39,677 nucleotides of DNA from Bifidobacterium breve (GTDB lineage: Bacteria; Actinomycetota; Thermoleophilia; Solirubrobacterales; Solirubrobacteraceae): contig CAMCUD010000038.1 in assembly GCA_945878865.1 (NCBI GenBank), positions 1 to 39,677 on the forward strand. The letters are read 5' to 3'. The first letter of the stretch is position 1; every line of letters starts with the position of its first letter. A program made the translations under genes and the position numbers. Shown here piece by piece: positions 2,955 to 21,197 of the stretch. The notes beneath the pieces are model-generated. The model saw nothing but the letters and a program-made list of their open reading frames with translations, did not search any database and was not told where the DNA came from.

Positions 2955-2964
2955 ACGCCCACCG

Positions 2965-2991
2965 TCGTCGGCGTGGCGCACGTCCGCTTGA
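2965..2991 (-). promoter_or_regulatory. Sigma-28-type promoter of flgF, close to leaderless
   Basis: Minus strand: TCAAG (2991-2987), 14 nt, GCCGACGA (2972-2965). The flgF ATG starts only 10 nt after the -10 element, so the transcript would have a leader of only a few nucleotides, with no room for a ribosome-binding site. Confidence 0.74.
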
Positions 2992-3022
2992 GGCGAACGG
3001 ACGCCTGGTCGATGAGAGGGAC

Positions 3023-3682: not shown

Positions 3683-3971
3683 ACGCCGCCGCCGCGCTGC
3701 GGCCCTGCGCTACGAGGGCGAAGGCGCCCCGCGCGTCGTCGCCACCGGCGCCGGCGAGATCGCCGAGCGGATCATCCAGCGCGCCATCGAGGCGGGAGTC
3801 CCCGTGCGCGACGACGCGGCGCTGGCGGAGGCCCTCGCGCGCGTGGAGATCAACCAGGAGATCCCCATGGAGCTCTACCAGGCGGTCGCGCAGGCGCTCG
3901 TCTGGGCGCACGGGCTCGACCTCGCGTCGCGGGTCGCCGCCCGGCAGGCGTCGCAGCGACTCGCCGGGTGA
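3669..3971 (+). CDS. Stand-alone FlhB C-terminal-domain protein (FlhX/EscU-YscU-like)
   Basis: This 100-residue protein matches the cytoplasmic domain of FlhB, the substrate-specificity switch of the flagellar export gate. It contains the segments AAALRYEGEGAPRVVATGAGEIAERI (about 9-34) and INQEIPMELYQAVAQAL (about 64-80). The membrane part of FlhB is missing, and the autocleavage NPTH motif is not seen in this protein. Such small FlhB-like proteins are known next to flagellar genes in many Gram-positive and deep-branching bacteria. The start ATG lies inside the end of the preceding FliK-like gene (14 nt overlap), matching the known functional link between FliK and FlhB. Confidence 0.83.
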   Translation: MSKPERRRRAAALRYEGEGAPRVVATGAGEIAERIIQRAIEAGVPVRDDAALAEALARVEINQEIPMELYQAVAQALVWAHGLDLASRVAARQASQRLAG

Positions 3972-4003
3972 CCAGAGCAGGCCACGGGGTGTCCCGCGTC
4001 GAA

Positions 4004-4032
4004 TTGACGGCCGACTACGGATGCCGTATTCG
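4004..4032 (+). promoter_or_regulatory. Housekeeping-type promoter of the cyd operon
   Basis: TTGACG (4004-4009), 17 nt, TATTCG (4027-4032), followed 26 nt later by the cydA ATG with a GAGGAAG ribosome-binding site. The spacing is ideal for the primary sigma factor. A GCCGACTA lies inside the spacer, but no matching flagellar -35 is found 14 nt before it. Confidence 0.5.
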
Positions 4033-4058
4033 CCCCGCTGACGAATTCTGAGGAAGAC

Positions 4059-5468
4059 ATGATCGACCTTCCCCTCGCCGACACCGCGCTCGACCTGTCC
4101 AGGTGGCAGTTCGCGATGACGTCGATCTACCACTTCCTCTTCGTGCCCCTGACCATCGGGCTCGCATACACGCTCGCCGTGATGCAGACCCTATGGTTCA
4201 AGACGCGCGACGAGCAGTGGCTTCGGTTGACGCGGTTCTTCGGCAAACTCTTCCTCATCAACTTCGCGATCGGGGTCGCCACCGGCCTCGTTCAGGAGTT
4301 CCAGTTCGGCATGAACTGGTCGGAGTACTCACGCTTCGTCGGCGACGTCTTTGGCGCGCCGCTGGCGATGGAAGGCCTCTTGGCCTTCTTCCTGGAGTCC
4401 ACCTTCATCGGGCTCTGGGTCTTCGGGTGGAGCCGGCTCAAGCCGGGTGTCCACCTCGCCACGATCTGGGCCGTCGCCATCGGGACGACGCTGTCGGCGT
4501 ACTTCATCCTCGCGGCGAACGCGTGGATGCAGGACCCCGTCGGCTACAAGCTCGTCGACGGACGGGCCCAGATGACCAGTGTCTTCGCGGTCCTCTTCAA
4601 CGAGACCGCGCTGCTGGCGTTCTTCCACACGATGGCCGCGGCGGCTGTGACGGCGAGCTTCTTCGTCATGGGCGTCAGCGCGTTCCATCTGCGTCGCGGG
4701 CAGGACGTCGCGGCGTTCAACAAGGCCGCGCGGATGGGCGCGGCGATCGCCGTCCCCGCGACGGTGTTCGTGCTGCTCATCGGCGACGACTTCATGCGCA
4801 ACATGGTCGAGCGCCAGCCGATGAAGGTGGCCGCGGCCGAGGCGCTGTACGACACGACGTCGAAGGCCGGGTTGTCCATCTTCGCGGTGGCGCCGCTGGA
4901 GGCCAACCCGGGTGAGACCACGGTCAACCTGAAGATCCCGTACGCGCTGTCGGTCCTGGCGACGAACAGCTTCGACGGGACCGTCGTGGGCATCGACCAG
5001 CTCCAGGCCCAGTACGAGAAGAAGTACGGCCCGGGCGACTACGTCCCGCCGGTCGGCGTCGTCTACTGGGGCTTCCGCGGCATGGTGTACATCGGCGGCG
5101 CGCTCGTCGCGATCGCCCTGTTCGCCGCGTTCCTGGCCTGGAAGGACCGGCTCAAGGAGCACCGGCTCTTCCAGCGGGTGCTGATCTGGTCCATCGCGCT
5201 GCCGTTCCTTGCGAACACGGCGGGCTGGGTCTACACCGAGGTCGGCCGCCAACCCTGGATCGTCCAGGGGCTGCAGCGGACCGCCGACGGCGTGTCGGTC
5301 GCGGTGCCGACGTGGCAGATCGCGGCGGGCATCATCACGTTCCTCGTGATCTACGGATTGCTCATCATCGTCGAGTTCTGGCTCATGCGCCGCTACGCGC
5401 AGCGCCTGCCCGAACCCGAGCGCGATGAGGCAGATCGCACGCTCCCGCTCCCGGCGATGAGCTACTAG
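4059..5468 (+). CDS. cydA: Cytochrome bd ubiquinol/menaquinol oxidase subunit I, CydA
   Basis: CydA carries the three haems of the bd-type terminal oxidase, which oxidises quinol and reduces oxygen to water with high oxygen affinity in the cytoplasmic membrane. The 469-residue protein has about nine hydrophobic segments. Family ligand residues are visible: H25 (TSIYHFLF), H190 (AFFHTMA), M342 (FRGMVY), and acidic residues E105 and E113 (AMEGL, FLEST). The quinol-site signature GRQPW is at 396-400. The Q-loop is short, as in many actinobacteria. The start ATG follows a good GAGGAAG. First gene of cydA-cydB-cydD-cydC. Confidence 0.97.
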   Translation: MIDLPLADTALDLSRWQFAMTSIYHFLFVPLTIGLAYTLAVMQTLWFKTRDEQWLRLTRFFGKLFLINFAIGVATGLVQEFQFGMNWSEYSRFVGDVFGAPLAMEGLLAFFLESTFIGLWVFGWSRLKPGVHLATIWAVAIGTTLSAYFILAANAWMQDPVGYKLVDGRAQMTSVFAVLFNETALLAFFHTMAAAAVTASFFVMGVSAFHLRRGQDVAAFNKAARMGAAIAVPATVFVLLIGDDFMRNMVERQPMKVAAAEALYDTTSKAGLSIFAVAPLEANPGETTVNLKIPYALSVLATNSFDGTVVGIDQLQAQYEKKYGPGDYVPPVGVVYWGFRGMVYIGGALVAIALFAAFLAWKDRLKEHRLFQRVLIWSIALPFLANTAGWVYTEVGRQPWIVQGLQRTADGVSVAVPTWQIAAGIITFLVIYGLLIIVEFWLMRRYAQRLPEPERDEADRTLPLPAMSY

Positions 5469-5480
5469 GAGGCAGAGACC

Positions 5481-6593
5481 ATGGCGAACTTCGCACTCGA
5501 TCTCGAGACCTTCTGGTTCCTCGCGCTCGGCTTCCTGTGGGTCGGCTACCTCGTCCTCGAGGGCTTCGACTTCGGCGTCGGCATGCTCCTGCCGTTCATC
5601 GGCAAGAGCGACAAGGACCGCCGGGTCATGATGAACTCGATCGGCCCGCACTGGGACGGCAACGAGGTGTGGGTCATCACGGCGGGCGCCGGCACGTTCG
5701 CGGCGTTCCCGGACTGGTACGCGACGCTGTTCAGCGCGTACTTCCTGCCGCTGCTCATCATCGTCGTCGCGCTCGTAGTCCGAGCCGTGGCGTTCGAGTA
5801 CCGCGGCAAGCACGACACGGCGCGGTGGAAGGGCAACTGGGATCGCATCATCGCGCTGACCAGCTTCCTGCCCGCCCTGCTGTGGGGCGTCGCGCTGACG
5901 GGCATCATCAACGGTGTCCCGATCGGCAAGGACATGCAGTTCACGGGGAACTTCTTCGACCTCGTGCAGCCCTTCGCCCTGATGGGCGGGCTGGTGACGT
6001 TCCTGCTGTCGCTGCTGTGCGGCGCGGTGTTCCTCGGCCTGAAGACGCACGGCGAGCTGCGTGAGCGTGCGCGGACGGTGGCCCAGCGGGTCGCCCCGAT
6101 CACGCTCGGCATCCTGCTGATCTTCGCGCTGTGGACCACGTGGGGCGTGCTCGGGGACGTCATCCCGAACGTGCTCCTGCTCACGGCGGCGGCGACGCTG
6201 ACCGGGGCGGTCGTGCTCACGACGCGGCGCGGCACGGAGGGCTGGTCCTTCCTGCTCGTCTCGCTGACGATCGCGTTCGCGGTCGGCGGCCTGTTCGTGA
6301 TCCTCTACCCGAACGTCATGGTGTCCTCGACGGACGCCGCGTTCAACCTGACGATCTACAACACGGCATCCGGCTCGTACACGCTGACCGTCATGACGAT
6401 CGTGGCGCTCGTGATGCTGCCGATCGTGCTCTTCTACCAAGCGGTCACGTACTACGTGTTCCGCGGCCGGCTGGATCCGGACACCCTTGAGGCCTCCCCC
6501 TCGCTCCCCGAGGCGGTGGCCAAGGTGGCCGACAAGGTCGGGATCACCGAAGAGCATCCGCCGCAGGCGAACGTCGATCCGCCGACGGCATAG
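5481..6593 (+). CDS. cydB: Cytochrome bd oxidase subunit II, CydB
   Basis: CydB is the second membrane subunit of the bd oxidase. The 370-residue protein has multiple transmembrane segments and the family signatures YLVLEGFDFGVGML (about 23-36) and GPHWDGNEVWVI (about 54-65). Ribosome binding is by AGGAGG at 5467-5472, which overlaps the cydA stop codon, so the two subunits are translationally linked. The soluble C-terminal tail (about 340-370) is Pro/Glu-rich. Confidence 0.97.
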   Translation: MANFALDLETFWFLALGFLWVGYLVLEGFDFGVGMLLPFIGKSDKDRRVMMNSIGPHWDGNEVWVITAGAGTFAAFPDWYATLFSAYFLPLLIIVVALVVRAVAFEYRGKHDTARWKGNWDRIIALTSFLPALLWGVALTGIINGVPIGKDMQFTGNFFDLVQPFALMGGLVTFLLSLLCGAVFLGLKTHGELRERARTVAQRVAPITLGILLIFALWTTWGVLGDVIPNVLLLTAAATLTGAVVLTTRRGTEGWSFLLVSLTIAFAVGGLFVILYPNVMVSSTDAAFNLTIYNTASGSYTLTVMTIVALVMLPIVLFYQAVTYYVFRGRLDPDTLEASPSLPEAVAKVADKVGITEEHPPQANVDPPTA

Positions 6594-8291
6594 GTGCGCG
6601 GTCTCGACCGCCGATTGATGGCGCGGGCCCGCGGGGTCCGCGCCGCACTCGCCGGGGACACCCTGCTGGGGGTCCTCGGCGCGGTGCTCGTCCTCGCCCA
6701 GGCGACGCTGCTGGCCAGCGTCATCGCCCGGGCGTGGGGCGGCGCCTCGCTCGCCGACGTGACCCCGGCGCTGCTGGGGTTCGCTGCGGTCGTCGCGGCG
6801 CGGTCGGGCCTGACGTGGGGCTTTGAGACCGTGGGCCGCCGGGCCGCCGCGAGCGTGCTGAGCGATCTGCGGATGGCGCTCGTGCGCCGGCGCCTGCGCG
6901 ACGCGCCGGCCGCGCTGGACGGCGTGCAGAGCGGCGAGGTCGCCGCGGCCGCGGTCGGCGGCATCGAGGCGCTGGAGAGCTACTTCGCGAAGTACCTGCC
7001 GCAGGTGGTGCTCGCGTGCATCGTGCCGCTCGCGGTGGTCCTGTGGTGCGCGCCGATCGACCTGCTGAGCGCGGGGATCATGCTCGCAACGCTGCCGCTC
7101 GTCCCGATCTTCATGGTGCTCGTCGGCTGGTACACGCAGAAGCGCACGACCGAGCGCTACGCGGCGATGGTCCGCCTGTCGACGCACTTCCTCGACGTGG
7201 TCCGCGGGCTGCCGACGCTGCGCGCGTTCAACCGCGGTGAGGCGCAGGCCGAGCGGATCGCCGAGGTCTCCGACGACTACCGCCGCGCGACGATGGGCAC
7301 GCTGCGCGTCTCGTTCCTCTCGGGCGCGGTGCTCGACCTGGCCGCCACGCTCGGCGTCGCGCTCATCGCGGTGACCGTGGGCGTGCGGCTGGTGGAGGGC
7401 CATCTGGCGCTGCAGGCCGGGCTGACCGTGCTGATCCTCGCGCCCGAGCTGTACGCGCCGCTGCGCGCGCTCGGCGCGCAGTACCACGCGAGCGCCGATG
7501 GCATGGCGGTCGCTGATCGCATCCTCGATCTTCTGGACGAGCCCGCTGCGGTGACGGTTCCGGATTCGGCCGTCGCGATGCCCGACCTGCGCGCGGTGCC
7601 GCTGCGCCTCGACGATGTCGCGTTCTCGTACCCCTCCCGTGAGGGCGACGTGCTGCGTGGCGCGTCGCTGGTGGTTGAGCCCGGGGAGCGCGTGGCGATT
7701 GTCGGGCCGAGCGGCGCGGGCAAGTCGACGATCGCGTCGCTGCTGCTGCGCCTGACCGAGCCCACCGGCGGCGCCGTGATGGCGGGTTCCGTCGACGCGC
7801 GCGAGGTCGACGTGGACGCGTGGCGCGCGGCGGTGGCCTGGGTGCCGCAGCGCGGGACGATCCTGCGTGGGACGGTCGCGGACAACATTCGCCTGGGCGC
7901 GCCGGATGCTTCGGATGTGGCCGTGCGGGAAGCCGCGCGTGCCGCGGGCGCCGACGGCTTCATCGCCGCACTGCCCGACGGCTACGACACGGTTGTCGGC
8001 GAGGGCGGCCGCGCGCTGTCGGCGGGCCAGGGGCAGCGTCTGGCGCTCGCCCGCGCGCTTGTGCGCGACGCTCCGCTGCTCCTCCTCGACGAGCCGACGG
8101 CGAACCTCGACGCGGAGAGCGCCGCGCTCGTCGCCGAGGCGGTCCGGCGGCTGCCGCGCGACCGCACGGTGGTGTTGATCGCGCACGACCGGGAGCTCGC
8201 GCGCGGGATGGATCGCGTGGTCGAACTGGTCGATGGTGCTTTCACGTTGCCTGACAACGTCAAAGCACCAGACGCCGAGGAGGCCCGATGA
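6594..8291 (+). CDS. cydD: ABC transporter CydD, cytochrome bd assembly (thiol exporter subunit)
   Basis: CydD pairs with CydC to form an ABC exporter of glutathione/cysteine-type thiols needed for bd oxidase assembly. The protein is 565 residues: a six-helix membrane domain (about 1-310) then an ATPase with Walker A GPSGAGKST (about 370), Q-loop VPQRG, signature LSAGQGQRLALARAL and Walker B LLLLDEPTANLD. The GTG start immediately follows the cydB stop without a gap. Codon use in the last 700 nt looks less extreme in third-position GC than its neighbours. The final 20 codons contain a near-perfect 16-bp palindrome (8234-8270) that is translated in frame, giving an unusual tail after the ATPase. 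Confidence 0.93.
   Translation: MRGLDRRLMARARGVRAALAGDTLLGVLGAVLVLAQATLLASVIARAWGGASLADVTPALLGFAAVVAARSGLTWGFETVGRRAAASVLSDLRMALVRRRLRDAPAALDGVQSGEVAAAAVGGIEALESYFAKYLPQVVLACIVPLAVVLWCAPIDLLSAGIMLATLPLVPIFMVLVGWYTQKRTTERYAAMVRLSTHFLDVVRGLPTLRAFNRGEAQAERIAEVSDDYRRATMGTLRVSFLSGAVLDLAATLGVALIAVTVGVRLVEGHLALQAGLTVLILAPELYAPLRALGAQYHASADGMAVADRILDLLDEPAAVTVPDSAVAMPDLRAVPLRLDDVAFSYPSREGDVLRGASLVVEPGERVAIVGPSGAGKSTIASLLLRLTEPTGGAVMAGSVDAREVDVDAWRAAVAWVPQRGTILRGTVADNIRLGAPDASDVAVREAARAAGADGFIAALPDGYDTVVGEGGRALSAGQGQRLALARALVRDAPLLLLDEPTANLDAESAALVAEAVRRLPRDRTVVLIAHDRELARGMDRVVELVDGAFTLPDNVKAPDAEEAR
8234..8270. repeat. 16-bp palindrome with one mismatch inside the 3' end of cydD
   Basis: Arms 8234-8249 (TGGTGCTTTCACGTTG) and 8255-8270 pair at 15 of 16 positions around a 5-nt loop (CCTGA). 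The single mismatch is C8243 opposite C8261. It lies after the last conserved ATPase motif and 18 nt before the cydC start. Confidence 0.7.
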
Positions 8292-9937
8292 GGAACGAGA
8301 CCCTGAGCCGCCTGCTCGTCCTCGCCGACGCGCCGCGCAAGCGCCTCGCGCTCGCCGTCGTCCTCGGCGCGCTGGCCGTGCTGTTCGGCGTCGGCCTCAT
8401 GGGCACGTCGGGCTACCTCATCAGCCGCGCGGCCGAGCAGCCGCCCGTGCTCTCCCTGACGGTCGCGATCGTCTTCGTCCGCTTCTTCGGCGTCTCCCGG
8501 CCCATCGCGCGGTACCTCGAGCGCCTGACCTCCCACGACGTCGCGTTCCGCACGCTCGGCACGCTCCGCTCGAAGCTCTACACGCGCATCGAACCGCTGG
8601 CGCCCGCCGGCCTGGCGACCTTCCGCCGCGGCGACCTGCTCAGCCGCATGGTCGCCGACGTCGACGCGCTCCAGGACCTCTACCTGCGCGGCCTGCTGCC
8701 GCCGCTGGTCGCGATCGTGGCGAGCGTGGTGTCGGTGGTCGCCGCAGCGATCTTCCTGCCGCTCGCCGGGCTCGTGCTCGCGATCGGCCTGCTCGTCCAG
8801 GGTGTCGCCGTCCCCGCGCTCGCCGGGCGCCTGAACCGCACGGCCGGCCGCCGCCAGGCCGCCGCCCGCGCGGCGCTCTCGGCCGAGCTCGTCGAGACGT
8901 TGCGCGCCGCGCCGGAGCTCGTCGCGTTCGGCGCCGCCGCCGCGCACGAAGAGCGGATCGCCGAGGCCGACCGCGAGCTCGACCGCGTCGCGCGCCGCGA
9001 CGCGTGGGTCGCCGGGCTGGGCGACGCGCTCGGCGTCCTGGTCACCGGCGTGACCGTCGCCGCCGTGACCGCGATCGCCGTCGCCGCCCACGACGCGACG
9101 ACGCTCGACCGGGTCCTCATCGGCATGCTCGCGCTCCTGACGATGGCCTCGTTCGAGGCGACCCAGCCGCTGGCCGAGGCCGCGCGCCGCCTCTCGGGCG
9201 TCGTCGCCGCAGGTGGCCGCGTGCTCGAGCTGACCGACCGCGAGGCGCCCGTCCAGGATCCGGGGGACCCGCTCCCGGCCCCGCCGCGCGACGCCCCACT
9301 CGTCATGGACGGCGTCCGCGCGCGCTACGGGCCCGACGAAGCGCCGGCCGTCGACGGGCTGGACCTGCGCCTGGAGCCCGGCTCGCGCGTAGCGCTGCGC
9401 GGCCCGTCGGGCTCCGGCAAGACGACCGCGGTGAACCTGCTCCTGCGCTTCATGGATCCCGAGCGCGGCCGCATCACGCTTGCGGGGGCCGACCTGCGCG
9501 ACTTCACCCAGGCTGATGTGCGCCGCCACATCGCCGTGTGCGGCCAAGACGCCCACCTCTTCAACTCGAGCATCCGCGAGAACGTCCGCCTCGCTCGCCC
9601 GTCCGCCACCGAGGAGGAGCTCGGCACCGCGCTACGGCGCGCCGGCCTCGACGACTGGATCGCCACGCTTCCCGACGGCGCGGACACGATGGTCGGCGAG
9701 GAGGGCGCCGAGCTCTCCGGCGGCCAGCGCCAGCGGATCGCGCTCGCCCGCGCGCTGCTCGCCGACGCGCCGGTGCTCGTGCTCGATGAGCCGACGGCGC
9801 ACCTGGACGAGGCGACGGCGCGGCGGGTCATCGACGACGCGTTCGATGCGGCGGATGACGATGATCGCGCGGTGCTGCTGATCACGCACCGCGGTGAGGG
9901 GCTCGAGCGCTGCGACGAGGTCGTGGAGCTGGTGTGA
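8288..9937 (+). CDS. cydC: ABC transporter CydC, cytochrome bd assembly
   Basis: This is the second half of the CydDC heterodimeric exporter. The 549-residue protein has an N-terminal membrane domain with the CydC-like start LGVGLMGTSGYLISRAA pattern (about 30-50). The ATPase follows: Walker A GPSGSGKTT (about 372), signature LSGGQRQRIALARALL and Walker B VLVLDEPTAHLD. The ATG overlaps the cydD stop by 4 nt (ATGA). The order cydA-cydB-cydD-cydC is standard for actinobacteria. Confidence 0.93.
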   Translation: MRNETLSRLLVLADAPRKRLALAVVLGALAVLFGVGLMGTSGYLISRAAEQPPVLSLTVAIVFVRFFGVSRPIARYLERLTSHDVAFRTLGTLRSKLYTRIEPLAPAGLATFRRGDLLSRMVADVDALQDLYLRGLLPPLVAIVASVVSVVAAAIFLPLAGLVLAIGLLVQGVAVPALAGRLNRTAGRRQAAARAALSAELVETLRAAPELVAFGAAAAHEERIAEADRELDRVARRDAWVAGLGDALGVLVTGVTVAAVTAIAVAAHDATTLDRVLIGMLALLTMASFEATQPLAEAARRLSGVVAAGGRVLELTDREAPVQDPGDPLPAPPRDAPLVMDGVRARYGPDEAPAVDGLDLRLEPGSRVALRGPSGSGKTTAVNLLLRFMDPERGRITLAGADLRDFTQADVRRHIAVCGQDAHLFNSSIRENVRLARPSATEEELGTALRRAGLDDWIATLPDGADTMVGEEGAELSGGQRQRIALARALLADAPVLVLDEPTAHLDEATARRVIDDAFDAADDDDRAVLLITHRGEGLERCDEVVELV

Positions 9938-9947
9938 GGATGCCCCC

Positions 9948-11678
9948 ATGGGCGTCCCCGCCTGGCTCTTCCCCTCCCTCCACGGCTACCGCCGCGCCTG
10001 TCTGCGCGGGGACCTGCTCGCCGGGCTGAGCGTCTGGGCGATCCTCATCCCGGAGGCGCTCGCGTACGCGACGATCGCCGGGGTCCCGCCCGTCGTCGGG
10101 CTCTACGCCGCGCCGCCCGCGCTGGTCCTCTACGCGGCGTTTGGCAGTTCGCGCCTGCTCATCGCCGGGCCGATGTCGGCGACCGCCGCGCTGTCGGCCG
10201 CCACGGTCGCCGACGTCGCGAGCGGCGGAAACGTCCTCGCGCTGACGATCACCCTCGCACTGCTCACCGGCGCCGCCGCGCTCCTCGCCGGCGCGGCGCG
10301 GCTGGGGTTCCTCTCGAACTTCATCTCCGAGCCGGTGGTCAAGGGGTTCATCGTCGGCCTGGCGATCATCATCATCGTCAGCCAGCTCCCAGTGCTGCTC
10401 GGGCTCGAACGCGGGACGGGCGACATCTTCGCCCAGCTCGACCACCTCATCGGCGATATTCCGGACACGGACACCACGTCCCTGGCGATCGGCGGGTCCT
10501 CCCTCGTGGCGCTGCTCGCGCTGCGCCGCTGGGGGCGGATGCTGCCGGCGGCGCTCATCGTCGTCCTGGCGAGCGTCGTCGCGGTGCGCGTGTTCGGCCT
10601 GGCCGACGACGGGATCGCGATCGTCGGGCCGATCACCGGCGGGCTGCCGTCACCGGGGCTCCCGGACGTCGGCCTGGACGAGATCCGCGCGCTCATCCCA
10701 GGGGCGCTGGGCATCATGCTCGTGGCGTTCGCCGAAGGCCTCGGCGCCGCCCGCGGCCTGTCCCGCGGGTCGGGCGCGGAGATCGACCCCGACCGCGAGC
10801 TGCTCGGGCTCGGCGCCGCCAACGTCGGGTCGGGCGTGTTCGGGGGCTTCGTCGTCAACGGCAGCCTGTCGAAGACCGCGGTGAACGTGGAGAGCGGCGC
10901 GCGCACGCAGCTGTCGGCGATCGTCGTCGCGGCGCTCGCGGTGGTCACGCTCGTGCTGTTCACCGACGTCTTCGAGGACCTGCCCGAGGCGACGCTGGCG
11001 GCGGTCGTGATCTTCGCGGTGGCGGACCTCGTCGACGTGCGCGCGCTCGCGTCGTACTACCGCGCGGTGGCGGGGCGGTCGGTCGCGCCGTTCTCCCTCG
11101 CGGCGCGCCCGGACTTCGTGGCGGCGATCGCGGCGCTTGGCGGGGTCCTCGTCCTCGGCACGTTGCCGGGGCTGTTCGCGGGGATCGCCGTCTCGCTCGT
11201 CCTGCTCATCTACCGCGCGTCACGCCCGCACATCGCCCGGCTCGGGCTCGCGCCGGGGAGCACCCAGTACACCGACATGGGCCGCCATCCGGAGAACGTC
11301 GCGCCCGACGGCGTCGTCGTGCTGCGCGTGGAGAGCCCCCTGTTCTTCGCCAACGCGCAGCTCGTGCGTCAGCGCATCCGCGAGGCGGCGCTGGAGCCGG
11401 GGATCCGTGCGGTCGTCATCGATGCGGAGACGGTCCCGACGATCGACATCACCGCTGCGCACATGCTGCACGAGCTCGGCGAGGACCTCGACCGCGAGGG
11501 TGTCCGGCTCCTGCTCGCGCGCGACGTCAGCCGCGTGCGGGACGTGCTGCGCCGGAGTCTCGGTCCCGAGGCGGCGACGCTGACGCACGTGTTCCCGACG
11601 GTCGCCGCGGCGGTCGATGCCGCACGATCGGAAGGGCAGCCGACCCAGCCGATGCGGGTGGTGCCGCCAGCGCCGTGA
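9948..11678 (+). CDS. SulP family inorganic anion transporter with STAS domain
   Basis: SulP/SLC26 proteins move sulfate, bicarbonate or other anions across the cytoplasmic membrane. The 576-residue protein opens with FPSLHGYRRACLRGDLLAGL and contains the family block AILIPEALAYATIAGVPPV (about 29-47). About ten further hydrophobic segments follow, then a C-terminal STAS domain (about 440-550) with VVIDAETVPTIDITA. The substrate cannot be read from the sequence. The start ATG is 10 nt after the cydC stop, so it is probably co-transcribed with the oxidase genes. A longer reading frame into cydC exists, but this start matches the family N-terminus. Confidence 0.9.
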   Translation: MGVPAWLFPSLHGYRRACLRGDLLAGLSVWAILIPEALAYATIAGVPPVVGLYAAPPALVLYAAFGSSRLLIAGPMSATAALSAATVADVASGGNVLALTITLALLTGAAALLAGAARLGFLSNFISEPVVKGFIVGLAIIIIVSQLPVLLGLERGTGDIFAQLDHLIGDIPDTDTTSLAIGGSSLVALLALRRWGRMLPAALIVVLASVVAVRVFGLADDGIAIVGPITGGLPSPGLPDVGLDEIRALIPGALGIMLVAFAEGLGAARGLSRGSGAEIDPDRELLGLGAANVGSGVFGGFVVNGSLSKTAVNVESGARTQLSAIVVAALAVVTLVLFTDVFEDLPEATLAAVVIFAVADLVDVRALASYYRAVAGRSVAPFSLAARPDFVAAIAALGGVLVLGTLPGLFAGIAVSLVLLIYRASRPHIARLGLAPGSTQYTDMGRHPENVAPDGVVVLRVESPLFFANAQLVRQRIREAALEPGIRAVVIDAETVPTIDITAAHMLHELGEDLDREGVRLLLARDVSRVRDVLRRSLGPEAATLTHVFPTVAAAVDAARSEGQPTQPMRVVPPAP

Positions 11679-13845: not shown

Positions 13846-14664
13846 TCACGCGACGGCGACGCTCTCGAGCATCGCCGCGTCGCCGTCGAGGGCGTCGCGG
13901 AGCTGGCGCTTCATCTGCGTGTGGATCTGGCACACGCGGCTTTCGCTGACGCCGAGGATCTTGCCGATCTCGGCCAGCGTCATGTTCTTGACGTACAGCA
14001 GGACCGCGATCTCGCGCTCGCGCTGGGGCAGCCGGGCGAACACCTCGCGGAAGCGCTCCTTGGCCGCCTCCTGCGTGGCCGCGTTCTCGGGGTCGAGGCG
14101 CGTGTCGCTCGACGCGAGCGTGTCGATGCGCTCGATCGTCGTCTCGTCGTCGCTGAGCACGAGCGTGTTCAGCGAGGTCAGGTCCGAGCGCGTGATCTCC
14201 TGCTGGCGCTCGCGCAGCGCGTCCGGGGACGTGCCGAGCGACTCGGCGAGCTCCTCGCGCGAGGGGTGACGGCCGTGCAGCGCGGCGAACTCCTCGACCG
14301 CACGCTCGATGTCGCGCTCCCAGCGGCGGACCGAGCGCGGGGCCCAGTCCTGGCGGCGCAGCTCGTCGAGCACGGCGCCGTGGATGCGGGTCCACGCGTA
14401 CTGCTCGAGCGTCGCGCCCTTGTCCGGGTCGTAGCGGTCGATCGAGCGGATGAGGGCCTCGAGGCCGCAGCTGATGAAGTCCTCGACCTCACAGCGGGCC
14501 GGCATCTCGCGGACCTTCTTGTAGACGATGTACTTCACGAGCGGCGCGAAGGTCAGGACGAGACGGTCTCGGAGAGCCTGATCCTTGGTCTCCTGGTACT
14601 GCTTCCACAGTGCCAGCGTCTCTTCCGGCGACATCCGGCGGCGACCGGACCTATCAGCCTGCAT
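13846..14664 (-). CDS. fliA: RNA polymerase sigma factor FliA/WhiG (sigma-28 family)
   Basis: This 272-residue alternative sigma factor matches the FliA/SigD/WhiG group: region 2 with VEDFISCGLEALIRSIDRYDPDKGATLEQYAWTRI, region 3 with RHPSREELAESLGTS, and region 4 ending in LPQREREIAVLLYVKNMTLAEIGKILGVSESRVCQIH. Region 1.1 is absent, as usual. The ATG at 14664 is preferred over longer in-frame openings because AGGAG lies 11-15 nt upstream and the family starts here. It stands alone on the minus strand inside the flagellar cluster. Seven promoters of its probable recognition type are found in the window, but none is seen in front of its own gene. No FlgM anti-sigma gene is present in the window. 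Confidence 0.93.
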   Translation of the reverse strand: MQADRSGRRRMSPEETLALWKQYQETKDQALRDRLVLTFAPLVKYIVYKKVREMPARCEVEDFISCGLEALIRSIDRYDPDKGATLEQYAWTRIHGAVLDELRRQDWAPRSVRRWERDIERAVEEFAALHGRHPSREELAESLGTSPDALRERQQEITRSDLTSLNTLVLSDDETTIERIDTLASSDTRLDPENAATQEAAKERFREVFARLPQREREIAVLLYVKNMTLAEIGKILGVSESRVCQIHTQMKRQLRDALDGDAAMLESVAVA

Positions 14665-14881: not shown

Positions 14882-14908
14882 TCAGGTTGCACCGACATCT
14901 GCCGACGA
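14882..14908 (+). promoter_or_regulatory. Sigma-28-type promoter of the TPR-glycosyltransferase
   Basis: TCAGG (14882-14886), 14 nt, GCCGACGA (14901-14908), 44 nt before the ATG at 14953. The -10 is identical to that of flgF. It ties the glycosyltransferase to the flagellar regulon. Confidence 0.68.
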
Positions 14909-14952
14909 CCCGGACAGATGTTCCTCTCCACCCCTCAGGAGGAGTTCGCCGC

Positions 14953-17439
14953 ATGGCCCTGCGCCTGACCGACGCCCCCGAGCCCGAACGTGGCCCCGGA
15001 GCGCCTGCGGCCGCGCCGGCGCCCGCCCCAGCCGCCAGCGAGGCGCAGGTCGTTCAGGCCCTGCGCGCCCGCGCCGACGCGCTGCTCACCCAGCGTGACC
15101 TCGACGCCTTCGCCGACCTCTGGAGTGAGGCCGCGGCGATCGCCGACCCGCAGCGCCGGTACCAGGCGAGGTGCGTCCTCGCCGAGGCCGGGCTCGCCGC
15201 GCAGGAGACCAGCGTGCAGGTGCTCACCGGCATCTACGCGGTCGTCGCGATGCGCACGCTCGAGGTCCTCGAGGAGGATCCCGCCGAGCCGCGCCTGCTC
15301 AATCTCGCGGGCATCGCGTTCTACGAGCTCTATGAGCTGCAGGCGGCCGACGCGCTGTTCGCCGCAGCCGAGCGCCTCCAGCCCGAGCTGCCGGGGGTCG
15401 CGGGCAACCGCGCCGAGGTGCGCCGCCGCCGCAAGGGGCGCACGCTGCAGCCCAAGCTTCCGGCCTCGGTCATCGCCGCGATGCACCAGCTCGTCCCGCG
15501 CGCCAAGCGCGTGGCGGCTTCGGCCAAGCCGGCGACCGGGCTCACCCTGAGCCTGTGCATGATCGTCAAGGACGAGGAGGAGATGCTCCCGCGGTGCCTG
15601 GCCGCCGCGAAGGACGCCGTCGACGAAATCATCATCGTCGACACCGGCTCCACCGACCGGACGGTCGAGATCGCTGAGGAGTTCGGCGCGACGGTCATCG
15701 AGTTCCCGTGGACGGGCTCGTTCAGCGACGCGCGCAACGTGTCGTTCGACGCCGCCACGTGCGACTGGATGATGTTTCTCGACGCCGACGAGGTCCTCGT
15801 CGAGGGCGAGGCGGAGAAGCTCCGCGAGCTCACGGGGCGCACCTGGGCCGAGGGCATCTACCTCGTCGAGCAGAACTACACCGGTATCGCCGAGGAAGGC
15901 ACCTCGGTCACGCACAACGCGCTGCGCGTCTTCCGCAACCGTCCCGAGTACCGGTTCACCGGCCGGCTGCACGAGCAGATCGCCCACACGCTGCCCGGAT
16001 ACCTGCCCGAGCGCATCGAGAACTCGACGGTTCGCCTCGAGCACTACGGCTACCTCACGACCGTCCGCGAGACGAAGGACAAGTCGCGCCGCAACCTCGA
16101 GCTGCTCGAGCGCCAGTCCGAGGAGGGCGTGGACACCGCGTTCCACCATTACAACCTCGGCACCGAGTACTTCGGTCTCGGCGACCTCGCGCGATCCGTC
16201 CAGCACTACGAGCAGGCGTGGGCGCGGGTCGAGGCCGACCCGACGATCAAGACCCACGGCTTCTACACGTCGCTGTGCGGCCGCTACGTCCAGATGCTGC
16301 GGATGAACGGCCGCTACGAGGACTGCATCGCGCTGGCCGACGAGGTCCTCGCGATGTACCCGGACCTCACCGACGCCGTCCTCGAGAAGGCGAACTCCGC
16401 GCGCGGCCTCGGCCGGGTCGAGGACGCACGCCGGTGGTACCGCCAGGCGCTGGAGATGGGCGACGCGCCGAGCCGGTACTCGGCGAACGTCGGCGCCGGC
16501 AGCTTCATGGCGCTCACCGGTCTTGCGGCCCTCGAGCGCGCCGACGGCGACCTCGCCGAGGCCGAGCGGCTGCTGCGCGAGGTCCGCGTCGAGTACCCGC
16601 AGTTCCTCGCGGCGGTCGGGCCGCTGGCCGACATCATGGGCGCGCGTGGCGCGGAAGCCGACGAGATCGTGGATGCCGTGGAGGCGGGCGAGGAGCTCGG
16701 CGCCGCCGGCCGCTTCATGCTCGCCGTCCCGTTGCACGAGCGCGGCGCCGCTGAGGCGGCCGAGCGCCAGCTCCGGGCGGCGCTCGACAAGCAGCCCGAC
16801 AGCCCGCAGCTGCTGCTGGCCCTCGGTGAGACGCTGCTCTCGCAGGACCGGCTGGACGAGGCCGGCGACGCGGTGACGCCGCTGATGGATCATCCCGAGT
16901 GGGCTGCGCAGGCTGCGCGGACGTTGCTCTTCTCGCGGCTGGCCGAGGAGGAGCGTGACGTTCCCGGCGACGAGCTGGACGCCGCGCTGGATGCCGCCGC
17001 CGAGGCGCGGATGGATCCCGCCGATCTTGCTCTGTTCCGCGCGTGGCGCGGGGTCCGCGACGGAGAGGCCCCCGGGGTCGTGGCCCCGGCGGCGGCGGGT
17101 CTGGCGCTGACGATGCTCGAGGCGCTGCTGCGCCTGGAGCACTTCGACCGGTTCGCGGAGCTGCTGCCGATCGTCGAGGCGATCGCGCTGCCCTGGCGGG
17201 AGCGCCACGAGCGGCTGGCGACGATGTACCTGCGCCGCGGGTTCCTGGAATCCGCCGCCGACGAGTGGGCCGCCGTCGTCAACGAGGCGGGTCCGGACGT
17301 GCCCGCGCTTCTGGGCCTCGCGCAGGTCGCCGCGGCGCGCGGCATGGTCGACGACGCCCAGCTCTTCGTTGAGGAAGCGCGCAAGCTCGAGCCGGCGAAT
17401 CCGGTCGCTTCGCGCATGCTGGAGGTGCTCGCGGGATGA
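14953..17439 (+). CDS. Family 2 glycosyltransferase with TPR repeats, probable flagellar glycosylation
   Basis: The 828-residue cytoplasmic protein has three parts. Residues about 30-160 are helical and TPR-like. A GT-A glycosyltransferase fold starts at LSLCMIVKDEEEMLPRCL (about 198) with IIIVDTGSTDRT and the nucleotide-sugar/metal motif FLDADE (about 274-279). A long C-terminal TPR array follows (about 390-828). This 'SLCMIVKDEE' GT2-TPR architecture is common in Gram-positive bacteria. The position just upstream of flaG-fliD and the sigma-28-type promoter suggest that it modifies flagellin or another axial protein; that is inference. The ATG has AGGAGGAG upstream. No flagellin gene lies in the window to test the pairing. 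Confidence 0.85.
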   Translation: MALRLTDAPEPERGPGAPAAAPAPAPAASEAQVVQALRARADALLTQRDLDAFADLWSEAAAIADPQRRYQARCVLAEAGLAAQETSVQVLTGIYAVVAMRTLEVLEEDPAEPRLLNLAGIAFYELYELQAADALFAAAERLQPELPGVAGNRAEVRRRRKGRTLQPKLPASVIAAMHQLVPRAKRVAASAKPATGLTLSLCMIVKDEEEMLPRCLAAAKDAVDEIIIVDTGSTDRTVEIAEEFGATVIEFPWTGSFSDARNVSFDAATCDWMMFLDADEVLVEGEAEKLRELTGRTWAEGIYLVEQNYTGIAEEGTSVTHNALRVFRNRPEYRFTGRLHEQIAHTLPGYLPERIENSTVRLEHYGYLTTVRETKDKSRRNLELLERQSEEGVDTAFHHYNLGTEYFGLGDLARSVQHYEQAWARVEADPTIKTHGFYTSLCGRYVQMLRMNGRYEDCIALADEVLAMYPDLTDAVLEKANSARGLGRVEDARRWYRQALEMGDAPSRYSANVGAGSFMALTGLAALERADGDLAEAERLLREVRVEYPQFLAAVGPLADIMGARGAEADEIVDAVEAGEELGAAGRFMLAVPLHERGAAEAAERQLRAALDKQPDSPQLLLALGETLLSQDRLDEAGDAVTPLMDHPEWAAQAARTLLFSRLAEEERDVPGDELDAALDAAAEARMDPADLALFRAWRGVRDGEAPGVVAPAAAGLALTMLEALLRLEHFDRFAELLPIVEAIALPWRERHERLATMYLRRGFLESAADEWAAVVNEAGPDVPALLGLAQVAAARGMVDDAQLFVEEARKLEPANPVASRMLEVLAG

Positions 17440-17504: not shown

Positions 17505-17531
17505 TCAACCTTGGCCAGATTGGACCGACTC
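17505..17531 (+). promoter_or_regulatory. Sigma-28-type promoter of flaG-fliD-fliS
   Basis: TCAAC (17505-17509), 14 nt, ACCGACTC (17524-17531), 78 nt before the flaG ATG. Spacing matches the other flagellar promoters of the window. Confidence 0.68.
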
Positions 17532-17609
17532 ATGGACCAGCGGGGCGCATCAGGGAGCGCGCCGCCCCGGCCCACGGAGGGGCTGGGCCATCGTCCAGGA
17601 GGCATGTCC

Positions 17610-18002
17610 ATGAACTTGCACGTCCTGCCCTTCGGGCGCGACGCCAAGACCGCGGAGATCGCGCCGACGCAGCTGCCTACGCGTCCGGCGAGCGGATCGA
17701 CGCCGGTCGATGCGGGTCAGTTCGCAAAGGTCTATGACGCCAGCGTGCTCGAGGCAGCACGCGAGGCGAAGCGCGGGCGCGACACCGTGGAGCCGATTCC
17801 GTCCCATGTGATGGATGAGGTCCACGCGGCCGCCCGTCTGTACGAGGAGCTGGCGGCCCGAGGCCGGCAGATCCGCTTCGACATGCACAAGCTCGACGGC
17901 CGCGTGGTCGCGGACCTCGTCGACACGGAGGGCAACGTCGTGCGCCCGATCTCGCTCAGCGAGGTCATGGACACCACGCCGGGGCCGGACGCGGCCGCGT
18001 AG
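17610..18002 (+). CDS. flaG: FlaG family flagellar protein
   Basis: This 130-residue protein's last 60 residues match FlaG: RQIRFDMHKLDGRVVADLVDTEGNVVRPISLSEVM (about 88-122), the usual 'L-x-F-x-x-D-x-x-x-x-x-x-V-x-V-x-D-x-x-T-G-E-V-I-R-x-I-P' pattern in degenerate form. FlaG influences filament length and typically precedes fliD, as here (21 nt before the fliD start). Two ATGs, at 17604 and 17610, are available; AGGAGG at 17597-17602 is properly spaced only for the second. The N-terminal half is a longer, less conserved segment than in most FlaG proteins. Confidence 0.78.
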   Translation: MNLHVLPFGRDAKTAEIAPTQLPTRPASGSTPVDAGQFAKVYDASVLEAAREAKRGRDTVEPIPSHVMDEVHAAARLYEELAARGRQIRFDMHKLDGRVVADLVDTEGNVVRPISLSEVMDTTPGPDAAA

Positions 18003-18023: not shown

Positions 18024-19382
18024 ATGGCCGGTATCGCACTCAGCGGACTCACGTCGGGGCTCGACACCAATTCGATGGTGACGCAGCTCATGGCGATCGA
18101 GAAGCAGGGACGCAACCGGCTCGTCTACCAGCAGGTCAACGCACAGGCTCGCGCTGACGCGCTCTCGAGCGTCACCACGAAGCTCAACACGCTGAAGTAC
18201 GCGGCGAACGACCTGAAGTCCAACGCGTTCTGGACGCCGACGCAGACGGTCGCCTCGACCGACACCGCGAAGGTCGGCGTGACGCGGACCGGCGGCGCCG
18301 GCGCCGGTGCGACGACGGTCGATGTCCTCTCGCTTGCGAGCTCCTCGCAGCGCACGTTCACGTACACCCCGCCGGTCGCCGACGACACCGTCACGTTCGG
18401 CGCCGTCTCGTTCAACGTCAAGGCGGGCGCCTCGCTCGACGACGTCGTCTCCACGATCAACGGGACGTCCGAAGCGGGCGTGATCGCGGTGAACGCGGGC
18501 GGCAAGCTTGTCGTCTCCAGCACCACGACCGGCGCGTCGAGCGCGTTCACCTGGAGCGGCGGGGCGCTGGCCCAGGACAGCGCGAAGGCGGGCGCCGACG
18601 CGCAGTACAAGCTCGACGGCGGCGCGATCCAGACCAGCGCGACGAACACCGTCAAGGACGCCATCCCCGGCGTCGAGATGGTCTTCAAGGGCGTCACGGG
18701 CAGCGCGGTGAGCGTCACCGTGACGGCGCCGACGGTCGACAAGCAGGCGATCAGCGACAAGCTCAAGGGCTTCGTCACCGCCTACAACGACCTGATCGAC
18801 ACGCTCAAGACGCTCACGGGCGAGAAGAAGGTCAACTCGCCGACGAGCAGCGCCGAGGCGGCGAAGGGCTCGCTCTACGGCGACTCGGGGCTGCAGTCCC
18901 TGTACTCCCGGCTGCGCTCGGCGGTCTCCGACGCCGTCTCCGGCCTGCCCGCGAGCGCCAACGATCTCGCGGATCTCGGCATCTCCACCGGCAAGGCGCA
19001 GGCCGCGATCAACGCGGATTCCGTCGCCGGCAAGCTCACCTTCGACGAGACGGCCTTCGCCGCGAAGTTCTCCAACGACCCGGTCGGCGTGCGCAAGCTG
19101 CTCGGCGCGGTGACGGGCACGAGCGGGATCGGGCAGCGCTTCTCGGATCTCATCACGCCGTACACGCAGGTCAACGGCATCCTCGCCGGGCGCAAGGAGA
19201 TGGCGGGGACCGAGCTGCGGACCATCCAGAAGTCGCTCGACACCTTCGACGCGCGGATGAGCGCGAAGCAGACCCGCCTGGAGGCCCAGTTCGCCGCCAT
19301 GGAGTCCGCGCTGAACCGGCAGAACAGCGCCGGCACCGCCCTGACGAACCAGCTCAACAGCCTGAACAGCAGCTCGTCGTGA
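18024..19382 (+). CDS. fliD: Flagellar filament cap protein FliD (HAP2)
   Basis: FliD caps the growing filament and assists flagellin folding outside the cell. The 452-residue protein begins with the family signature GIALSGLTSGLDTNSMVTQLM (residues 3-23). The N-terminal FliD domain is followed by a variable Thr/Ser/Gly-rich middle and the C-terminal FliD_C domain, ending in a coiled helix with QTRLEAQFAAMESALNRQNS (about 416-435). The ATG has AGGAGAGGAAG upstream. Low aromatic content and absence of cysteine fit an exported axial protein. It is followed by fliS after 34 nt. Confidence 0.95.
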   Translation: MAGIALSGLTSGLDTNSMVTQLMAIEKQGRNRLVYQQVNAQARADALSSVTTKLNTLKYAANDLKSNAFWTPTQTVASTDTAKVGVTRTGGAGAGATTVDVLSLASSSQRTFTYTPPVADDTVTFGAVSFNVKAGASLDDVVSTINGTSEAGVIAVNAGGKLVVSSTTTGASSAFTWSGGALAQDSAKAGADAQYKLDGGAIQTSATNTVKDAIPGVEMVFKGVTGSAVSVTVTAPTVDKQAISDKLKGFVTAYNDLIDTLKTLTGEKKVNSPTSSAEAAKGSLYGDSGLQSLYSRLRSAVSDAVSGLPASANDLADLGISTGKAQAAINADSVAGKLTFDETAFAAKFSNDPVGVRKLLGAVTGTSGIGQRFSDLITPYTQVNGILAGRKEMAGTELRTIQKSLDTFDARMSAKQTRLEAQFAAMESALNRQNSAGTALTNQLNSLNSSSS

Positions 19383-19416: not shown

Positions 19417-19791
19417 ATGAATCCGTACGCCAGCCCCCAGGCGTCCTATCGCCAGAACAGCGTCCTCACGGCCTCCCCCGGCCAGCTCGTCGTCATGCTC
19501 TACGACGGCGCGATCCGCTTTCTGCGCCAGGGCGAGCTCGCGATGCAGGAAGGCCTGATCGCGCAGACGAACGACCGGCTCCAGCGCGCCGAGGCGATCA
19601 TCGACGAGCTGCTCGCCACGCTCAACGACGACGCGGGCGAGATCACCGAGCGCCTACGCTCCATCTACGTCTACTGCCGGGGCCAGCTCATGACGGCGCG
19701 GATCCAGCGCGATCCGAGCAAGGTCCGCGAGGTCATCGGGCACATGTCCGAGCTCCGCGAGGCGTGGGCGCAGATCGCGGGAACCGCCTGA
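19417..19791 (+). CDS. fliS: Flagellin export chaperone FliS
   Basis: FliS binds the C-terminus of flagellin in the cytoplasm and prevents premature polymerisation. The 124-residue protein has the family start NPYASPQASYRQNSVLTASP (2-21), then GQLVVMLYDGAIRFL (22-36), the standard FliS helix. No clear ribosome-binding site precedes the ATG. Its stop overlaps the next gene by 1 nt. Confidence 0.95.
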   Translation: MNPYASPQASYRQNSVLTASPGQLVVMLYDGAIRFLRQGELAMQEGLIAQTNDRLQRAEAIIDELLATLNDDAGEITERLRSIYVYCRGQLMTARIQRDPSKVREVIGHMSELREAWAQIAGTA

Positions 19792-20123: not shown

Positions 20124-20144
20124 TCCGGAGCGATGTTCTCCGGA
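20124..20144 (+). promoter_or_regulatory. Hairpin holding the start codon of the secreted protein in its loop
   Basis: Arms TCCGGAG (20124-20130) and CTCCGGA (20138-20144) enclose a 7-nt loop that contains the ATG (20133-20135); the GGAG ribosome-binding site lies in the 5' arm. A folded leader would hide the initiation site. Confidence 0.4.
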
Positions 20145-21197
20145 CGACCTGTCCGCCTCCGGCGGGTCGGGCGCCTCGCTGCGCTCGCCGCCGTGGCCGG
20201 CCTCGCGCTGCCGGCGTCCGCGTCGGCGCTGACCGTCGAGGGCGCCGTCGCCGACGCCGTCGCGGGTGTCTCCGGCGCGCCGGCGGGCACGGTGCTGACG
20301 ATGTTCGTCGAGGCCGATCCCGGCACGCCGGTCCCACGGTCGGTCGCGTTCTCCGTCGGCCAGGGCCTGCAGTTCGGCCCGACCGGCCCCGGATGCGACC
20401 CGCAGACCGTCCGCGACGCGCCGCTCTCGTGCCCGGCGGGCTCGGAGGTCGGGGCGGGCGAGATGGAGACGTCCGCCGGCTCGTTCGACCTCGCGGCGTT
20501 CACGACGTCCGGCGGCGGGCTCGCCGTGCGGATCGAGACGTCCCCCTCCCCGGTGCTCGTCGACGTCGCGACCGGGTCGGTGGCCGGCGGCGGGTCCACG
20601 CTGGCGCTCGCGCTGCCGGGCGGCATCCGCGGCGCGACGCTGCAGTCGCTGCGCCTGCGCCTCGGCGGGATGGACCCGGCGAACGACTGGGTGCGCAGCA
20701 CGCTGTGCCCGAACGGCGCGTGGTCGCTCGGCGCCGCGCTGACGGGCGATGCCGGGCAGGACCTCGGCAGCGGCGTCGCGTCGATCGGCTGCCGGCCCCC
20801 GCGCCTGGCGCAGCTGTCCGGCGTGTCACCGTCCTTCTCGCTGTCCCGGCGCATCCGCAACGGCAAGGTGTCGCCGCTGCAGCTCACAGGGGTCTCCCTG
20901 CCCGCCGGCCTGCCCGCCGACGGGACGGCGCACGTGACGTGCCGCGCGGGGTGCCGCGGGTCGTGGAGCCGTGGCGTGCGCGCCGGCGGCCCGACGCAGA
21001 TCCCCATCCGCCCGTCGCTCACCGCGACCCGTAGCGACCTGCAACTGCAGATCGCAGTTGCGAGCCCGAGCGTCCGCGGCACGTACCTCGTGATCCGCTT
21101 CACGCGCAGCGGCGGACGGGTCACCGGGTGGAAGGGCGTCGGCCGCGGGTGTCTGCGGCTGGGCTCGGCGCCCGTGCGCATCAGCTGTCCGCGGTGA
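20133..21197 (+). CDS. Secreted protein of unknown function with Cys motifs
   Basis: Function not recognised. The 354-residue product has a Sec-type signal (RLRRVGRLAALAAVAGLALPASASA, about 8-32) and a beta-rich mature part. A CDPQTVRDAPLSCPAGSEVGAGEM segment (about 89-112) matches the 'CPxxSxxGxG' pattern I associate with secreted proteins of Thermoleophilia. Further Cys pairs lie near the C-terminus (CRAGC at about 271-275). It sits between fliT-like and flgB, on the same strand, but no flagellar promoter lies before it. A role in surface structures is only positional inference. Confidence 0.75.
   Translation: MFSGRPVRLRRVGRLAALAAVAGLALPASASALTVEGAVADAVAGVSGAPAGTVLTMFVEADPGTPVPRSVAFSVGQGLQFGPTGPGCDPQTVRDAPLSCPAGSEVGAGEMETSAGSFDLAAFTTSGGGLAVRIETSPSPVLVDVATGSVAGGGSTLALALPGGIRGATLQSLRLRLGGMDPANDWVRSTLCPNGAWSLGAALTGDAGQDLGSGVASIGCRPPRLAQLSGVSPSFSLSRRIRNGKVSPLQLTGVSLPAGLPADGTAHVTCRAGCRGSWSRGVRAGGPTQIPIRPSLTATRSDLQLQIAVASPSVRGTYLVIRFTRSGGRVTGWKGVGRGCLRLGSAPVRISCPR

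What the first reader, a model, noticed from the sequence alone, without database searches (positions are those of the whole stretch)
14882..17439. TPR-glycosyltransferase predicted to be in the flagellar regulon
The 828-residue GT2/TPR protein has its own sigma-28-type promoter and lies just before flaG-fliD. This points to glycosylation of flagellin or another axial protein in a lineage where it is little studied. The N-terminal TPR-like part plus C-terminal TPR array could hold the substrate or the export machinery.
Basis: partly seen in the sequence, partly recalled or inferred. Interest (0 to 1): 0.55.

Follow-up and report, generated by a model that had tools for sequence, protein, structure and literature searches.

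The report
Likely flagellin-sugar-adding enzyme in Solirubrobacterales
A gene beside the flagellar genes of a little-studied actinobacterium encodes an enzyme that probably attaches sugar to the protein of the swimming filament, and in the sampled relatives it is kept by nearly all that have flagella and by none that lack them.

Summary
Window 14953-17439 (+) encodes 828 residues: an N-terminal TPR-like module, a GT-A/GT2 domain and a C-terminal TPR array, between a divergent FliA/WhiG-family sigma gene and flaG(-like)-fliD-fliS. The promoter at 14882-14908 is weak alone, but a flagellin-derived sigma-28-type motif recurs there in 26 of 30 orthologues, against 1 to 4 of 30 in control stretches. 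The orthologue is in 47 of 151 genomes of the order; all 47 have FliD and flagellin, and 47 of the 52 genomes with both have it. In 42 of 47 it is within 5 kb of fliD; in three genomes of one genus it instead lies beside a flagellin gene. Closest solved sequence is GmaR (E 6.6e-38), whose GT domain adds GlcNAc to flagellin; closest solved fold is SunS. Best reading: a cytoplasmic flagellin O-glycosyltransferase of the flagellar regulon. Substrate, sugar and sigma dependence are inferred. What differs is the extra N-terminal TPR-like module, found only in this order's orthologues, and the lineage. New variant of a known kind.

The parts
14953..17439 (+). GT2/TPR protein, 828 aa, predicted flagellin O-glycosyltransferase
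   Evidence: ORF; Pfam; GmaR/SunS matches; AF2 model
14882..14908 (+). sigma-28-type promoter TCAG-N15-GCCGACGA
   Evidence: score 8.8, p=0.026 alone; motif upstream in 26 of 30 orthologues
14937..14942 (+). ribosome-binding site AGGAGG of the GT gene
   Evidence: sequence
15040..15522 (+). N-terminal TPR-like module, residues 30-190
   Evidence: AF2 models; top Foldseek hits are TPR domains but E >= 0.01; full-length match only in the 4 Solirubrobacterales loci among 80
15541..16122 (+). GT-A/GT2 catalytic domain, about residues 197-390
   Evidence: PF00535; GmaR 22ao E 6.6e-38; SunS fold Z 26.9
15781..15792 (+). DADE (residues 277-280), DXD-type motif
   Evidence: D277, D279, E280 invariant in 29 of 29 aligned orthologues
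16138..17433 (+). C-terminal TPR superhelix, residues 396-827
   Evidence: Pfam TPR families; AF2; residues 356-503 align to GmaR 7x9r
13846..14664 (-). FliA/WhiG-family sigma factor, divergent neighbour
   Evidence: TIGR02479 213.6 bits, over cut-off; divergent within 1.5 kb of the GT in 40 of 47 genomes
17604..18002 (+). FlaG-like gene (ATG after AGGAGG)
   Evidence: Pfam FlaG E 0.18 in the window, over cut-off in 3 of 5 relatives
17505..17531 (+). weak sigma-28-like site before flaG
   Evidence: score 3.7 here; the stretch after the GT is significant in 25 of 30 loci
18024..19382 (+). fliD, filament cap
   Evidence: Pfam FliD_N and FliD_C
19417..19791 (+). fliS, flagellin chaperone
   Evidence: Pfam FliS E 1.5e-37

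Best explanation
A cytoplasmic protein O-glycosyltransferase of the flagellar regulon. A FliA-type sigma factor, most likely the product of the divergent gene next door, switches the enzyme on together with flagellin, flaG and fliD. The TPR parts on either side of the catalytic domain bind flagellin (or flagellin with a chaperone), and the GT-A domain transfers a common nucleotide sugar (UDP-GlcNAc or a UDP-hexose) to Ser/Thr before export. Shown by computation: domain architecture, invariant catalytic-type residues, promoter conservation, co-occurrence, synteny. Inferred: enzymatic activity, flagellin as substrate, the sugar, the role of the TPRs, which sigma factor reads the promoter.
For: Closest PDB sequence is the GmaR GT domain (E 6.6e-38; also GmaR TPR part 7x9r, E 2.4e-16); GmaR transfers GlcNAc to flagellin (PMC9638930 introduction). 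Orthologue in 47 of 151 genomes, all 47 with FliD and flagellin; 97 genomes with neither GT orthologue nor FliD; Fisher 5e-32, not corrected for phylogeny; found in three families of the order (35, 7 and 5 genomes). Within 5 kb of FliD in 42 of 47. In three sampled genomes of genus g9 it is next to a flagellin gene on the same strand (G077, G030, G072). Flagellin-trained promoter motif upstream in 26 of 30 orthologues at p<0.05; other strand 3 of 30, inside the gene 1 of 30 and 4 of 30. D277/D279/E280, H340/E341/Q342 and H364 invariant in 29 of 29. Nonulosonate synthase (NeuB/PseI type, E<=1e-40) in only 6 of the 47, so a common sugar donor is likely.
Against: No biochemical data. Five of 52 genomes with FliD and flagellin lack it, three of them one genus. 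Central flagellin Ser/Thr content does not differ between GT-bearing and GT-lacking genomes (0.20 against 0.18, p=0.14, 27 and 25 flagellins; the GT-lacking set is mostly one genus). Most distant relatives are not seen near flagellar genes: 18 of 80 loci had flagellin or FliD within the fetched flank, 4 of these being the Solirubrobacterales loci. Three of the 47 orthologues show one stop in the matched frame. The window's own promoter site is weak.
Confidence: 0.72

Rival explanations
1. The enzyme glycosylates a different axial or filament-associated protein, such as FliD, FlgK/FlgL or the hook protein, rather than flagellin.
For: In 42 of 47 genomes the gene is beside flaG-fliD. Flagellin Ser/Thr content shows no signal.
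Against: In the three sampled genomes of genus g9 that carry it, the gene is beside flagellin and away from fliD. The nearest characterised relative acts on flagellin.
Confidence: 0.13
2. It is mainly a regulator or a bifunctional protein: like GmaR it may bind a transcription factor through the C-terminal helical repeats, with catalysis secondary or lost.
For: GmaR is bifunctional (PMC9638930). The C-terminal array is long. The gene lies next to a sigma gene in 40 of 47 genomes.
Against: Catalytic-type residues are invariant in 29 of 29. No MogR-family protein was found, although no control rang in that search. The PDB sequence match to GmaR covers only the GT and first TPR part. The GT-domain tree puts GmaR among Firmicutes proteins, not with this clade.
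Confidence: 0.08
3. A surface-glycan or other non-flagellar glycosyltransferase that sits in the flagellar locus by chance.
For: GT2 domains are common: 38 PF00535 matches in this genome. Many relatives outside the order have no flagellin or FliD within the fetched flank.
Against: No orthologue in any of the 97 of 151 genomes that lack FliD; conserved sigma-28-type promoter; same place across three families.
Confidence: 0.05

Closest known systems
GmaR of Listeria monocytogenes (PDB 22ao, labelled GmaR; 7x9r)
   Same: GT2 domain followed by TPR helices; flagellar; best PDB sequence match for both parts; GmaR adds GlcNAc to flagellin (PMC9638930)
   Different: GmaR starts with its GT domain and ends in a MogR-binding antirepressor domain; here an extra TPR-like module precedes the GT, no MogR hit was found, and the GT-domain tree places GmaR elsewhere
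SunS/ThuS peptide S-glycosyltransferases
   Same: closest solved fold, Z 26.9 and 24.6; GT-A domain with C-terminal helical part
   Different: they act on bacteriocin peptides (recalled; entry names); TIGR04195 score 68.7 is far below its cut-off of 350; here the context is flagellar
FlmG of Caulobacter crescentus
   Same: cytoplasmic flagellin O-glycosyltransferase with an N-terminal TPR domain that binds flagellin (PMC7591256 passages)
   Different: FlmG has a GT-B-type domain and the flagellins carry pseudaminic acid; here the fold is GT-A with a second TPR array after it
GT2-TPR predicted flagellin glycosyltransferases of Clostridium flagellar loci
   Same: GT2 domain plus TPR repeats near flagellin; also only predicted (PMC13317340 passages)
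   Different: different phylum; no full-length N-terminal module was found in the non-Solirubrobacterales relatives searched

Membership tests
Glycosyltransferase family 2 (PF00535) | score over the curated cut-off | tested here: met
   75.5 bits, cut-off 23.3
Glycosyltransferase family 2 (PF00535) | GT-A fold with DXD-type motif | tested here: met
   AF2 model aligns to SunS, TarS, TarP, SpsA; D277 and D279 invariant in 29 of 29
GmaR | GT domain homologous to the GmaR GT domain | tested here: met
   E 6.6e-38 over residues 191-388
GmaR | GT domain at the N-terminus | tested here: not met
   residues 30-190 form a separate TPR-like module before the GT
GmaR | C-terminal MogR-binding antirepressor domain and a MogR partner | tested here: inconclusive
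   sequence match to 7x9r reaches only chain residues 25-168; no MogR hit in the genome, but no control genome rang
GmaR | transfers GlcNAc to flagellin | not testable with these tools
   needs biochemistry
SunS family (TIGR04195) | score over the curated cut-off of 350 | tested here: not met
   68.7 bits
FlmG | N-terminal TPR domain that binds flagellin | tested here: inconclusive
   an N-terminal TPR-like module is present; binding not testable here
FlmG | GT-B-type catalytic domain | tested here: not met
   catalytic domain is GT-A
FliA/WhiG sigma (TIGR02479), neighbour gene | score over the curated cut-off of 189.6 | tested here: met
   213.6 bits; two other genes of this genome also pass

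The most novel reading that the evidence does not exclude
The protein is a clamp-like, order-specific flagellin glycosyltransferase in which two TPR arms, one on each side of a GT-A domain, dock flagellin before export, and which also reports flagellin supply back to the divergent FliA-type sigma factor (a GmaR-like dual function evolved independently, without MogR).
Probability: 0.08. Interest if true: 0.65.

Novelty: new variant of a known kind. Interest (0 to 1): 0.42.

Why it matters
It predicts that flagellin (or another axial protein) is glycosylated in nearly all flagellated Solirubrobacterales, a lineage for which five text searches found no report of flagellin glycosylation. It gives a compact, testable case of how TPR arms could set substrate choice in a flagellin glycosyltransferase. 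The natural gain/loss pattern (47 of 52 flagellated genomes) and the conserved promoter make both substrate and regulation directly testable in cultured relatives.

Tried and rejected
Single-genome promoter evidence: a loose consensus gives 84 matches in the genome (10 for the reversed pattern) and the window holds many sites scoring 6 or more, so the site alone proves nothing; cross-genome conservation was used instead. In that call one in-gene control stretch (+1500) was not clean (4 of 30 at p<0.05, Fisher 0.003), and only 14 of 29 flagellin upstream stretches (a 30th was too short) had a site good enough for training; the other 15 were dropped.

Ser/Thr enrichment of flagellin in GT-bearing genomes: no difference.

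Pseudaminic acid as obligatory donor: rejected, since a NeuB/PseI-type synthase occurs in only 6 of 47 GT-bearing genomes at E<=1e-40 and 7 at E<=1e-20; no match reached the curated PseI cut-off.

Plain GmaR orthologue: not adopted, because of the extra N-terminal module and the tree position. Several deep tree nodes have very low support (0.03 to 0.04), and the support of the GmaR grouping itself was not printed. Loci without a flagellin or FliD hit may be cut at contig ends, or missed by profiles trained on this order.

N-terminal module by sequence: Pfam gives nothing for the window's own module and only sub-threshold TPR hits in 3 of 6 tested. Foldseek top hits are TPR domains but none reaches E 0.001. 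'TPR-like' is therefore a fold-level call. VIA-align was run on the full-length model only.

The scans read some loci on the wrong strand; they were redone with correct orientation, and only the contingency counts are used.

Full report
What is there. The ORF at 14953-17439 (+), with AGGAGG at 14937-14942, encodes 828 residues. Pfam finds Glycos_transf_2 at residues 200-302 (E 6e-21) and several TPR families after it. An AlphaFold2 model from 29 aligned orthologues (mean pLDDT 89.1, pTM 0.74) shows a disordered start, helices at 30-190, an alpha/beta domain at about 199-390 and helical repeats to residue 827. The N-terminal module alone folds with pLDDT 96.5 into eight helices; its best Foldseek hits are TPR domains but none better than E 0.01, so it is TPR-like at fold level only. 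The gene is followed by a FlaG-like gene (weak in the window, over the cut-off in 3 of 5 relatives), fliD and fliS, and preceded by a divergent FliA/WhiG-family sigma gene (TIGR02479 213.6 bits, cut-off 189.6). The wider window holds flagellar and chemotaxis genes on both sides.

What it resembles. By sequence the nearest solved proteins are GmaR (GT domain 22ao, E 6.6e-38; TPR part 7x9r, E 2.4e-16) and SunS (E 1e-17). By fold SunS (Z 26.9, rmsd 3.5 over 311 residues) and ThuS (Z 24.6) stand well above the next rows (Z 18.5 and below). The GmaR paper states that the GT domain transfers GlcNAc to flagellin and that the C-terminal part counteracts the repressor MogR (PMC9638930, abstract and two sections read). 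The acidic DXD-type residues (D277, D279, E280) and the shared HEQ and H364 positions are invariant in 29 of 29 aligned sequences.

Who has it. In a sample of 151 genomes of the order, drawn evenly by the tool, 50 have a match at E<=1e-20; three of these (E 1e-34 or weaker) are partial matches to other GT proteins and were dropped, leaving 47 at E<=1e-100. FliD matches 54 and the flagellin N-domain 54 of the same 151. All 47 have both; 52 genomes have both; 97 have neither the orthologue nor FliD; Fisher p 5e-32 against FliD, not corrected for shared ancestry. The 47 fall in three families (35, 7, 5). The five genomes with FliD and flagellin but no orthologue are three of genus g16 plus G115 and G150; in the four of these whose loci I read (G111, G063, G115, G150), sigma, flaG and fliD lie together with no GT between. 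Three of the 47 carry one stop codon within the matched frame.

Where it sits. It is within 5 kb of FliD in 42 of 47 and divergent from the sigma gene within 1.5 kb in 40 of 47. Of the five not near FliD, two are on different contigs and three belong to genus g9, where the GT lies next to a flagellin gene on the same strand (G077, L069, about 0.2 kb apart; likewise G030 and G072). A gene that is away from fliD but beside flagellin points to flagellin as its substrate.

Promoter. A motif was trained on 14 of 29 flagellin upstream stretches (TMAA-N15/16-GCCGATSA) and scored on the 160 bases upstream of 30 GT loci (30 of the 47; the tool gave loci for the best 30, the window's own among them): 26 of 30 beat dinucleotide shuffles at p<0.05 (median score 12.1). 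The other strand gave 3 of 30, and two stretches inside the gene 1 of 30 and 4 of 30. The stretch after the GT, which in most loci is upstream of flaG, gave 25 of 30, so flaG-fliD seems to have its own such promoter; in the two g9 loci among the 30 (L022, L029), where flaG does not follow, no good site follows the GT. The window's own site (14882-14908) scores only 8.8, p=0.026. This genome has three FliA/WhiG-family genes over the cut-off, the best of them elsewhere (C15, 278.8 bits), so the sigma that reads the site is inferred from position. The window's sigma is found at E<=1e-70 in 46 of the 47 GT genomes and in 60 of 151 overall.

The wider family. Of 80 loci found with the orthologue alignment, 4 carry the full-length orthologue of this order; 18 of 80 carry flagellin or FliD in the fetched flank. 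In a GT-domain tree the Solirubrobacterales clade (support 1.0) is sister to two proteins from other contigs (one labelled Actinomycetes, one unidentified) that lie near flagellins (support 0.90); GmaR falls among Firmicutes proteins, several from flagellar loci (deep nodes poorly supported). The N-terminal module gives a full-length match only in those 4 loci. The architecture is therefore specific to this order in what was searched. [quoted passage not shown]

Mechanism, and what is inferred. The most likely mechanism is co-expression with the late flagellar genes, docking of cytoplasmic flagellin on TPR arms, transfer of a common UDP-sugar to Ser/Thr, then export. Regulation and catalytic competence rest on conserved sequence; substrate, sugar and the role of the arms are inference. 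Because a nonulosonate synthase is present in only 6 of 47 GT genomes, a widely available donor is more likely than pseudaminic acid. Ser/Thr content of the flagellin centre gave no support (0.20 against 0.18, p=0.14).

Print status. Searches for Solirubrobacterales with flagella, Actinoplanes with flagellin glycosylation, Actinobacteria with flagellin glycosyltransferase and fliD, Solirubrobacter with flagellin glycosyl, and Thermoleophilia with flagellin glycosyltransferase (listings only) showed no paper on flagellin glycosylation in this lineage; subscription papers are mostly not held.

Verdict. A real, conserved, flagellum-linked glycosyltransferase; a new variant (extra N-terminal TPR-like module, new lineage) of a known kind.

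Noticed in passing
L159 (G000:C4:43000-62900): 2746-4551, 5937-7070, about 7.1-8.1 kb, 8139-8780: A pseudaminic-acid-type gene set in the same genome: PseB (448.9 bits, over cut-off, with an extra N-terminal part in the ORF), PseC (442.5, over cut-off), a NeuB/PseI-family synthase, and a pseudaminic-acid-associated methylase (over cut-off). A flagellin gene lies about 25 kb away on the same contig (C4:20573). Nonulosonate decoration of flagellin or surface in a Solirubrobacterales is worth a look.
   Followed up: partly
L061:10591-11772: A 393-aa GT2-domain protein directly upstream of the flagellin gene at L061:12514-13356, which has a TAAA-N15-GCCGATCA promoter.
   Followed up: no
window 4059-11678: cydA-cydB, two ABC transporter genes and a sulfate-permease-family gene lie between the flagellar hook/rod, FlgN and FlgK-like genes (2-2981, minus) and the flagellar sigma gene; in relatives (L064, L065, L066, L070) these flagellar genes lie close to the sigma gene.
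   Followed up: partly
G063, G111, G131 (L151, L152, L155): Genus g16 has 6 to 10 Flagellin_N matches per genome, many in tandem, and lacks the TPR glycosyltransferase.
   Followed up: partly
G000:C15:12792-13472, C38:13888-14562, C13:62181-62852: Three FliA/WhiG-family sigma genes over the TIGR02479 cut-off in one genome; the best scoring one is not the flagellar-locus one.
   Followed up: no
L076 and L082: ORFs of 1716 and 1729 residues with this GT domain near residues 1053-1258, a few kb from flagellin genes, in other actinobacterial or unidentified contigs: a larger multidomain version.
   Followed up: no
window 20133-21194: A 354-aa ORF between fliS and flgB with coding-like GC bias but no Pfam or NCBIfam match.
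   Followed up: no
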